A stretch of 64,000 nucleotides of DNA from NCBI GenBank assembly GCA_002898215.1, contig BEIF01000001.1, positions 62,001 to 126,000 on the forward strand, read 5' to 3'. Both the position numbers and the translations under genes were made by a program. The notes under the pieces were generated by a model, which saw only the letters and a list, made by a program, of their open reading frames with translations, made no database searches and had not been told where the DNA came from. Each line of letters starts with the position of its first letter. The first letter of the stretch is position 1. Below, one piece after another: positions 14,920 to 15,801 of this stretch. Source of the DNA: a bacterium HR29. GTDB lineage: Bacteria; Chloroflexota; Dehalococcoidia; Tepidiformales; Tepidiformaceae.

Positions 14920-15801
14920 CTACTGGCAGTGGCGGTTGTTCGAGCGGAAGTCGCTCAGCGCCGGATCGTTCACGTTGCAGAGGAACTGCCGGTAGCGGGT
15001 ATCGTTATCCACCCACAGCTTCATCCAGGAGATGGTGTACACGGAGATCGCCGCGTTCGGGCTGTTCGGAGCGAAGTGCGTCGCGTTGTCCAGCTCCACG
15101 TACACCTTCGGCGTCGTCGAGGGGAGGTTCTGGTAGAAGGGGATGGCGTGCTGGCTGACCGGCGCGACCGTGTCGGCCTCGGCTCCCACGATGAGCTGCG
15201 GGACGGGTGTGTTGAAGGTCTTATCGGTGTGCCACGGCGTGAGGGGAACGCCGGCCTTCAGAGTAGGAATCTGCTCGGAGATGCGCAGCGTGGCGCCGCC
15301 GCCCATCGAATGGCCGGCCACGGCCAGGCGGTTCGCGTCGAGGCGGGCGCGAACGGCCGAGGGGCTGCTCGTGCGGAGGTAGTTGAGCGCCGCCGAGAGC
15401 TGGCTCGCGCGAGAATCGGGGAAGTCGAGCCGGCTGTTCGTGTTGATCACGATCACCACGAAGCCGTGGGAAGCGAGGCGGCGGCCCAACCACGCCAGGG
15501 AGCTCGCATCGGCCGTGTAACCCGGCGACATGGCGATGCCGCCAAAGGTCAGCGTCGTCCCGGTGGGGTAGTAGATGACCCCGCCGCCGAACCCGCTGAC
15601 CGAGAGCCGGGAGACGCTGTACGTGGCGACGGAGAACGGACCGTCGGTCGTGAGCGCGCTCCGGGTCGGGTTGGGACCGCGCTGGTACGGGTTCGACTGC
15701 GCCTCGGCGCTGGGCGAGGCCCACACCAGCGCCCAGGCTGCGAGGGCGAGCAGCGCCGCAAGCAGCCCCGCGGACCGCACTCGTCCAAGAACGACCTGCA
15801 T
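14920..15801 (-). CDS. Secreted polyester hydrolase / cutinase, LCC-BhrPETase type
   Basis: A 293-residue secreted alpha/beta hydrolase that cleaves ester bonds of cutin-like polyesters; its family includes thermostable poly(ethylene terephthalate) hydrolases. A signal peptide (residues 1-35, ending ASPSAEA) precedes mature [11 protein letters not shown]. The catalytic triad is Ser165 in GHSMGGG, Asp210 in GAEADTVAP and His242 in ATHFAP. Oxyanion-hole and aromatic residues Tyr95, Met166 and Trp190 are present, and Cys275 and Cys292 can form the C-terminal disulfide. From memory it is essentially the BhrPETase sequence and about 94 percent like leaf-branch compost cutinase, with identical length and numbering. 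Residues Leu125 and Phe127 at the substrate cleft differ from my recollection of LCC (Phe, Tyr). ATG 15801 was chosen over the longer frame because GAGGAGGAG sits about 8 nt before it and the signal peptide begins there. It is monocistronic. Confidence 0.95.

What the first reader, a model, noticed from the sequence alone, without database searches (positions are those of the whole stretch)
14920..15801. Genomic home of an LCC/BhrPETase-type polyester hydrolase
The protein has the length, numbering, triad (Ser165, Asp210, His242), C-terminal disulfide and mature start of leaf-branch compost cutinase. By recollection it is identical or almost identical to BhrPETase of 'bacterium HR29'. LCC was isolated from a compost metagenome without its host. 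Here the gene sits in a chromosome with rho, polA and purL nearby. It is monocistronic with its own promoter and terminator, which argues for a resident gene of a thermophilic Chloroflexota lineage rather than a stray plasmid gene. No other cutinase, transporter or aromatic-diacid gene is adjacent, so the natural substrate is open.
Basis: partly seen in the sequence, partly recalled or inferred. Interest (0 to 1): 0.9.

Follow-up and report, generated by a model that had tools for sequence, protein, structure and literature searches.

The report
Known plastic-degrading enzyme's source genome
The gene encodes BhrPETase, an already published heat-stable plastic-degrading enzyme; what is added here is evidence that it is a rare, patchily gained chromosomal gene in one group of Chloroflexota bacteria, and the sequence of one more close relative of the industrial enzyme LCC.

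Summary
ORF 14920-15801(-) encodes 293 aa. Its mature 258 residues are identical to PDB 7eoa (solved BhrPETase) and 242/258 (94%) identical to LCC, with Ser165/Asp210/His242 and Cys275/Cys292 in place. So the enzyme is already known, and a 2024 review already places BhrPETase in Chloroflexi and suggests the same for LCC (PMC11219463). The gene is chromosomal and single-copy in a 2.34 Mb, 97% complete genome whose GTDB family includes a named 'uncultured Dehalococcoidia' MAG. 'Resident gene' needs revising: only 2 of 38 family genomes and 2 of 393 class genomes carry it. In the second carrier (G423, another genus) it lies between two genes that are adjacent in all four congeners examined; G423 branches inside that group, and the gene's GC3 is low for its host. 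A gain is the simplest reading. Promoter-like sequence is shared by both copies. G423 encodes a third LCC-clade enzyme, 86% identical to LCC. The host lacks detectable terephthalate dioxygenase and MHETase but has 24 acyl-CoA dehydrogenase matches, so a natural fatty polyester is a likelier substrate than PET (inference).

The parts
14920..15801 (-). BhrPETase gene, 293 aa precursor; Ser165/Asp210/His242 triad; Cys275 and Cys292
   Evidence: 258/258 mature residues identical to PDB 7eoa; residues checked; Pfam PF12740 PETase 4.7e-124
15697..15801 (-). Probable Sec signal peptide, residues 1-35 (mature chain starts at Ser36 as in 7eoa and 4eb0)
   Evidence: 7eoa and 4eb0 chains start at query residue 36; signal peptide assignment is inference from sequence
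15810..15817 (-). Ribosome-binding site GAGGAGGA, 8 nt before the ATG
   Evidence: Read from sequence; CACGAGG-GGA context conserved upstream of the G423 homologue
15869..15897 (-). Putative promoter: TTGACG, 17-nt spacer, TAGAAG; the spacer and first base of the -10 form the perfect inverted repeat ATCAGGGgaaaCCCTGAT (15874-15891)
   Evidence: Aligns with TTGACA-16-TATAAA upstream of the G423 homologue (upstream alignment score 57, none of 300 shuffles reached it); not found by the strict scan
14857..14910 (-). GC-rich hairpin just after the stop codon, possible terminator without U-run
   Evidence: Inverted repeat; fold -49.2 kcal/mol, z -1.98; a GC hairpin also follows the G423 gene
16356..17564 (-). 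Upstream neighbour: LysM + M23 peptidase, then rho (17810-19147)
   Evidence: Pfam and NCBIfam; rho-LysM next to TlpA-RR-HK without cutinase in G401
13875..14813 (-). Downstream neighbour: SDR oxidoreductase (closest NCBIfam PRK07791, below cut-off)
   Evidence: 70% identical SDR next to TlpA in G418, so the SDR precedes the cutinase at this site
11052..13850 (.). Syntenic anchor: TlpA-like redoxin (+), response regulator (-), histidine kinase (-)
   Evidence: the module lies 5.4 kb from the cutinase in G423 too

Best explanation
The gene encodes BhrPETase, a secreted alpha/beta-hydrolase that cuts ester bonds of polyesters by the Ser165-His242-Asp210 triad (enzyme shown by identity to a published enzyme; secretion inferred from the signal peptide). 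In its host it is an accessory chromosomal gene read from its own promoter (inferred). Its natural job is most likely to release hydroxy fatty acids from cutin- or suberin-like polyesters or other insoluble esters, which the cell then burns by beta-oxidation (inferred). The gene is not a core trait of its family: it has been gained, probably laterally, at least in the G423 lineage.
For: Identity to 7eoa and 94% to LCC. Single chromosomal copy between housekeeping genes. No terephthalate dioxygenase alpha subunit (PF00848 absent), no tannase/MHETase over cut-off, 24 acyl-CoA dehydrogenase matches, P450s. Distribution 2/38 in family, 2/393 in class, and no close homologue elsewhere in a 400-genome phylum sample. 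Four congeners of G423 have ACAD and SIR2 adjacent with no cutinase; G423 is nested among them (98.5/100); GC3 of the G423 gene is third lowest of 51. Upstream control region shared.
Against: Both carriers have the gene within about 6 kb of the same TlpA-RR-HK module, which by chance is about 0.5% (12 kb of 2.5 Mb) and favours an old shared locus. The cutinase is the most conserved of 51 gene pairs (84% against a median of 52%), but the enzyme family is conserved in general: in actinobacteria it exceeds flanking genes by about 16 points between genera and 28 between families, so that excess alone is weak evidence of transfer. The nucleotide identity of 75.5% rules out a very recent transfer between these two. 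The natural substrate is untested.
Confidence: 0.62

Rival explanations
1. The gene is ancestral to the family, sat near the TlpA-RR-HK module, and was lost many times, also within the genus of G423.
For: Both copies lie in the same neighbourhood upstream of TlpA-RR-HK and share promoter-like sequence; the G000 copy has host-like GC3 (0.91).
Against: Needs losses in 16 other genera and at least two inside genus g2; no remnant was found in 17 related loci; the G423 copy has atypical GC3.
Confidence: 0.27
2. The gene is a mis-binned or plasmid-borne contaminant in these MAGs.
For: Both carriers are probably MAGs; distribution is patchy.
Against: The gene lies on a 1.56 Mb contig between orthologues conserved in the family, and in G423 between genes syntenic with congeners. 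No plasmid record matches above 60% and no viral contig encodes a relative.
Confidence: 0.03
3. The lineage evolved the enzyme to use PET or other aromatic polyesters.
For: BhrPETase and LCC hydrolyse PET in vitro (PMC10869840, PMC10577388).
Against: No Rieske terephthalate dioxygenase and no MHETase-like tannase over cut-off; geothermal origin of the HR genomes (PMC5877337, from the literature); divergence within the clade is far older than PET (inference).
Confidence: 0.03

Closest known systems
BhrPETase of bacterium HR29 (GBD22443, PDB 7eoa)
   Same: All 258 mature residues identical; the window is evidently its source genome or one of the same species.
   Different: Nothing in the mature protein; precursor residues 1-35 could not be compared here. 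NCBI taxonomy still lists HR29 as unclassified Bacteria.
Leaf-branch compost cutinase (LCC, PDB 4eb0)
   Same: 94% identity (242/258), same triad and disulfide cysteines, same length.
   Different: 16 substitutions, among them L125F and F127Y (Bhr to LCC) near the substrate site. LCC's own host is still unsequenced.
Actinobacterial cutinases (Thermomonospora, Micromonospora, Actinomadura)
   Same: PF12740 family, same fold family and catalytic residues.
   Different: At most about 61% identical; the LCC clade is separate from them with 99/95 support on a long stem.

Membership tests
LCC/BhrPETase-type polyester hydrolase (PF12740) | Pfam PETase domain over cut-off | tested here: met
   413 bits against cut-off 28
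LCC/BhrPETase-type polyester hydrolase (PF12740) | At least 80% identity to LCC or BhrPETase | tested here: met
   100% and 94%
LCC/BhrPETase-type polyester hydrolase (PF12740) | Ser165/Asp210/His242 triad and Cys275/Cys292 | tested here: met
LCC/BhrPETase-type polyester hydrolase (PF12740) | Monophyly with LCC, apart from actinobacterial cutinases | tested here: met
   99/95 in 42 rows, 99/99 without the longest branch; long stem and distant outgroup limit the rooting
LCC/BhrPETase-type polyester hydrolase (PF12740) | Hydrolyses PET | not testable with these tools
   Published for BhrPETase (PMC10869840, PMC10577388)
Chloroflexota (Dehalococcoidia/Tepidiformaceae) chromosome | Genome placed in that family | tested here: met
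   Same GTDB family as G423, whose record is titled uncultured Dehalococcoidia bacterium. The name Tepidiformaceae is my inference; no named Tepidiforma genome could be compared and no tree of polA/rho/purL against named phyla was built.
NCBIfam BHET hydrolase BdeA (NF051441) | Score over the equivalog cut-off | tested here: not met
   373.6 bits against 520; homologous, not filed there

The most novel reading that the evidence does not exclude
LCC-type polyesterases form a small Chloroflexota clade whose gene travels horizontally between genera as a unit with its own promoter, and repeatedly settles in the same chromosomal neighbourhood; LCC itself would come from an unsampled member of this pool.
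Probability: 0.4. Interest if true: 0.5.

Novelty: already known. Interest (0 to 1): 0.35.

Why it matters
LCC and BhrPETase are the main scaffolds for enzymatic PET recycling, yet LCC's host is unknown and their natural role is open. A closed genomic setting, a list of close relatives that lack the gene, and a third clade member (G423, L002:3725-4600, 291 aa) give a direct way to test host, substrate and regulation, and one more natural starting point for engineering.

Tried and rejected
Plasmid origin: tblastn against 72,556 plasmid records gave nothing above 60% identity. Phage carriage: no relative in viral contigs. Insertion-sequence carriage: no DDE_Tnp_1 transposase in the genome (other transposase families not searched) and no repeats flanking either copy. 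Cutinase remnants at empty sites: none. 16S placement: no 16S found in the genome. The 71-bp repeats upstream as a dispersed element: no other copy in the genome. A first reading of the 84% against 52% contrast as strong proof of transfer was weakened after an actinobacterial control showed cutinases to be conserved in general. One search in the sample of papers for LCC plus Chloroflexi plus host found nothing, but the reviewed statement was found by another route.

Full report
Observation. The ORF at 14920-15801 on the minus strand encodes 293 residues. Residues 36-293 are identical, letter for letter, to PDB 7eoa, the solved PET hydrolase known as BhrPETase, and 242 of 258 match LCC 4eb0, in line with the published 94% (PMC10869840). 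Ser165, Asp210, His242, Cys275 and Cys292 are in place. Pfam PF12740 (PETase) scores 413 bits.

Genome. The window is bases 62001-126000 of the 1.56 Mb first contig of a 2.34 Mb genome in 4 contigs, 97% complete; the gene occurs once. Rho, purL and polA are in the window. No named label comes with the genome, but a second genome of the same GTDB family (G423) matches, over 3,834 identical bases, a public record titled 'uncultured Dehalococcoidia bacterium'. That supports Chloroflexota. The name Tepidiformaceae fits the thermophilic, high-GC relatives described in PMC10284905 but is inference. NCBI taxonomy still has bacterium HR29 as unclassified Bacteria. The HR genomes come from 65-70 C bioreactors seeded from a subsurface geothermal stream (PMC5877337).

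What was already known. The enzyme, its structure and its PET activity are published. A 2024 review states that BhrPETase comes from Chloroflexi and that LCC probably does too (PMC11219463).

Distribution. The gene is rare: 2 of 38 genomes in the family (18 genera), 2 of 393 in the class sample, and only weak, distant hits (34% identity or less over long stretches) in a 400-genome phylum sample.

Neighbourhood. In the window the order is rho, LysM/M23 peptidase, cutinase, SDR, TlpA-like redoxin, response regulator, histidine kinase. G401 has rho, LysM, a small gene, TlpA, RR, HK without cutinase or SDR; G418 has TlpA next to a 70% identical SDR, without cutinase. In G423 the cutinase lies between an acyl-CoA dehydrogenase and a SIR2 gene, 5.4 kb from TlpA-RR-HK. 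Four congeners have the same block with these two genes adjacent, about 150 bp apart, and no cutinase. No remnants were found. A tree from seven proteins of the block puts G423 with G420/G422, and G218/G424 outside (98.5/100), so one gain in G423 is simpler than two or more losses. The G423 gene's GC3 is 0.77, third lowest of 51 orthologues (mean 0.84), while the window copy is host-like (0.91).

Transfer or loss. Among 51 reciprocal best hits between samples of the two genomes the cutinase is the most alike, 84% against a median of 52%. A control tempers this: between actinobacterial genera of one family, cutinases are 78% identical when flanking genes are 63%; between families 70% against 42%. 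The shared TlpA-RR-HK neighbourhood speaks for an old common locus (chance about 0.5%, my estimate from genome size). I therefore put lateral gain at roughly two to one over ancestral presence with many losses. No mobile element was seen next to either copy.

Control signals. The strict scan finds no promoter. But the upstream regions of the window and G423 genes align: TATTGACG..17..TAGAAG against TATTGACA..16..TATAAA, followed by a shared CACGAGGxGGA ribosome site (score 57, shuffle maximum 50). In the window the spacer is a perfect inverted repeat ATCAGGGgaaaCCCTGAT, not shared by G423. A GC hairpin follows the stop codon in both, without a U-run.

Phylogeny. Window, LCC and G423 form one clade (99/95; 99/99 after removing the longest branch), at most 61% identical to sampled actinobacterial cutinases. 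The stem and outgroup are long, so the direction of any older exchange with actinobacteria cannot be read.

Third member. L002:3725-4600 encodes 291 aa, 221/258 identical to LCC and 218/258 to BhrPETase, with the triad, the cysteines and the listed substrate-site residues as in LCC. I found no paper on it, but the search was limited.

Role. The genome has no Ring_hydroxyl_A protein, no tannase/MHETase over cut-off, 24 acyl-CoA dehydrogenase matches and several P450 genes. That fits use of fatty-acid monomers rather than terephthalate. It remains inference.

Noticed in passing
L002:3725-4600: A third LCC-clade enzyme (291 aa, 86% identical to LCC) in another genus, with LCC-like substrate-site residues.
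   Followed up: yes
16073-16283: Three degenerate copies of an about 71-bp tandem repeat between the cutinase and the LysM/M23 gene; no other copy in the genome.
   Followed up: partly
15874-15891: Perfect inverted repeat ATCAGGGgaaaCCCTGAT between the putative -35 and -10, operator-like; absent from the G423 copy.
   Followed up: no
35636-35752: A lone 5S rRNA gene between uvrB and a ribosomal protein S1-like gene; no 16S match was found in the whole genome.
   Followed up: partly
48394-50862: Large molybdenum hydroxylase subunit, nearest models 4-hydroxybenzoyl-CoA reductase alpha and XdhA, both below cut-off.
   Followed up: no
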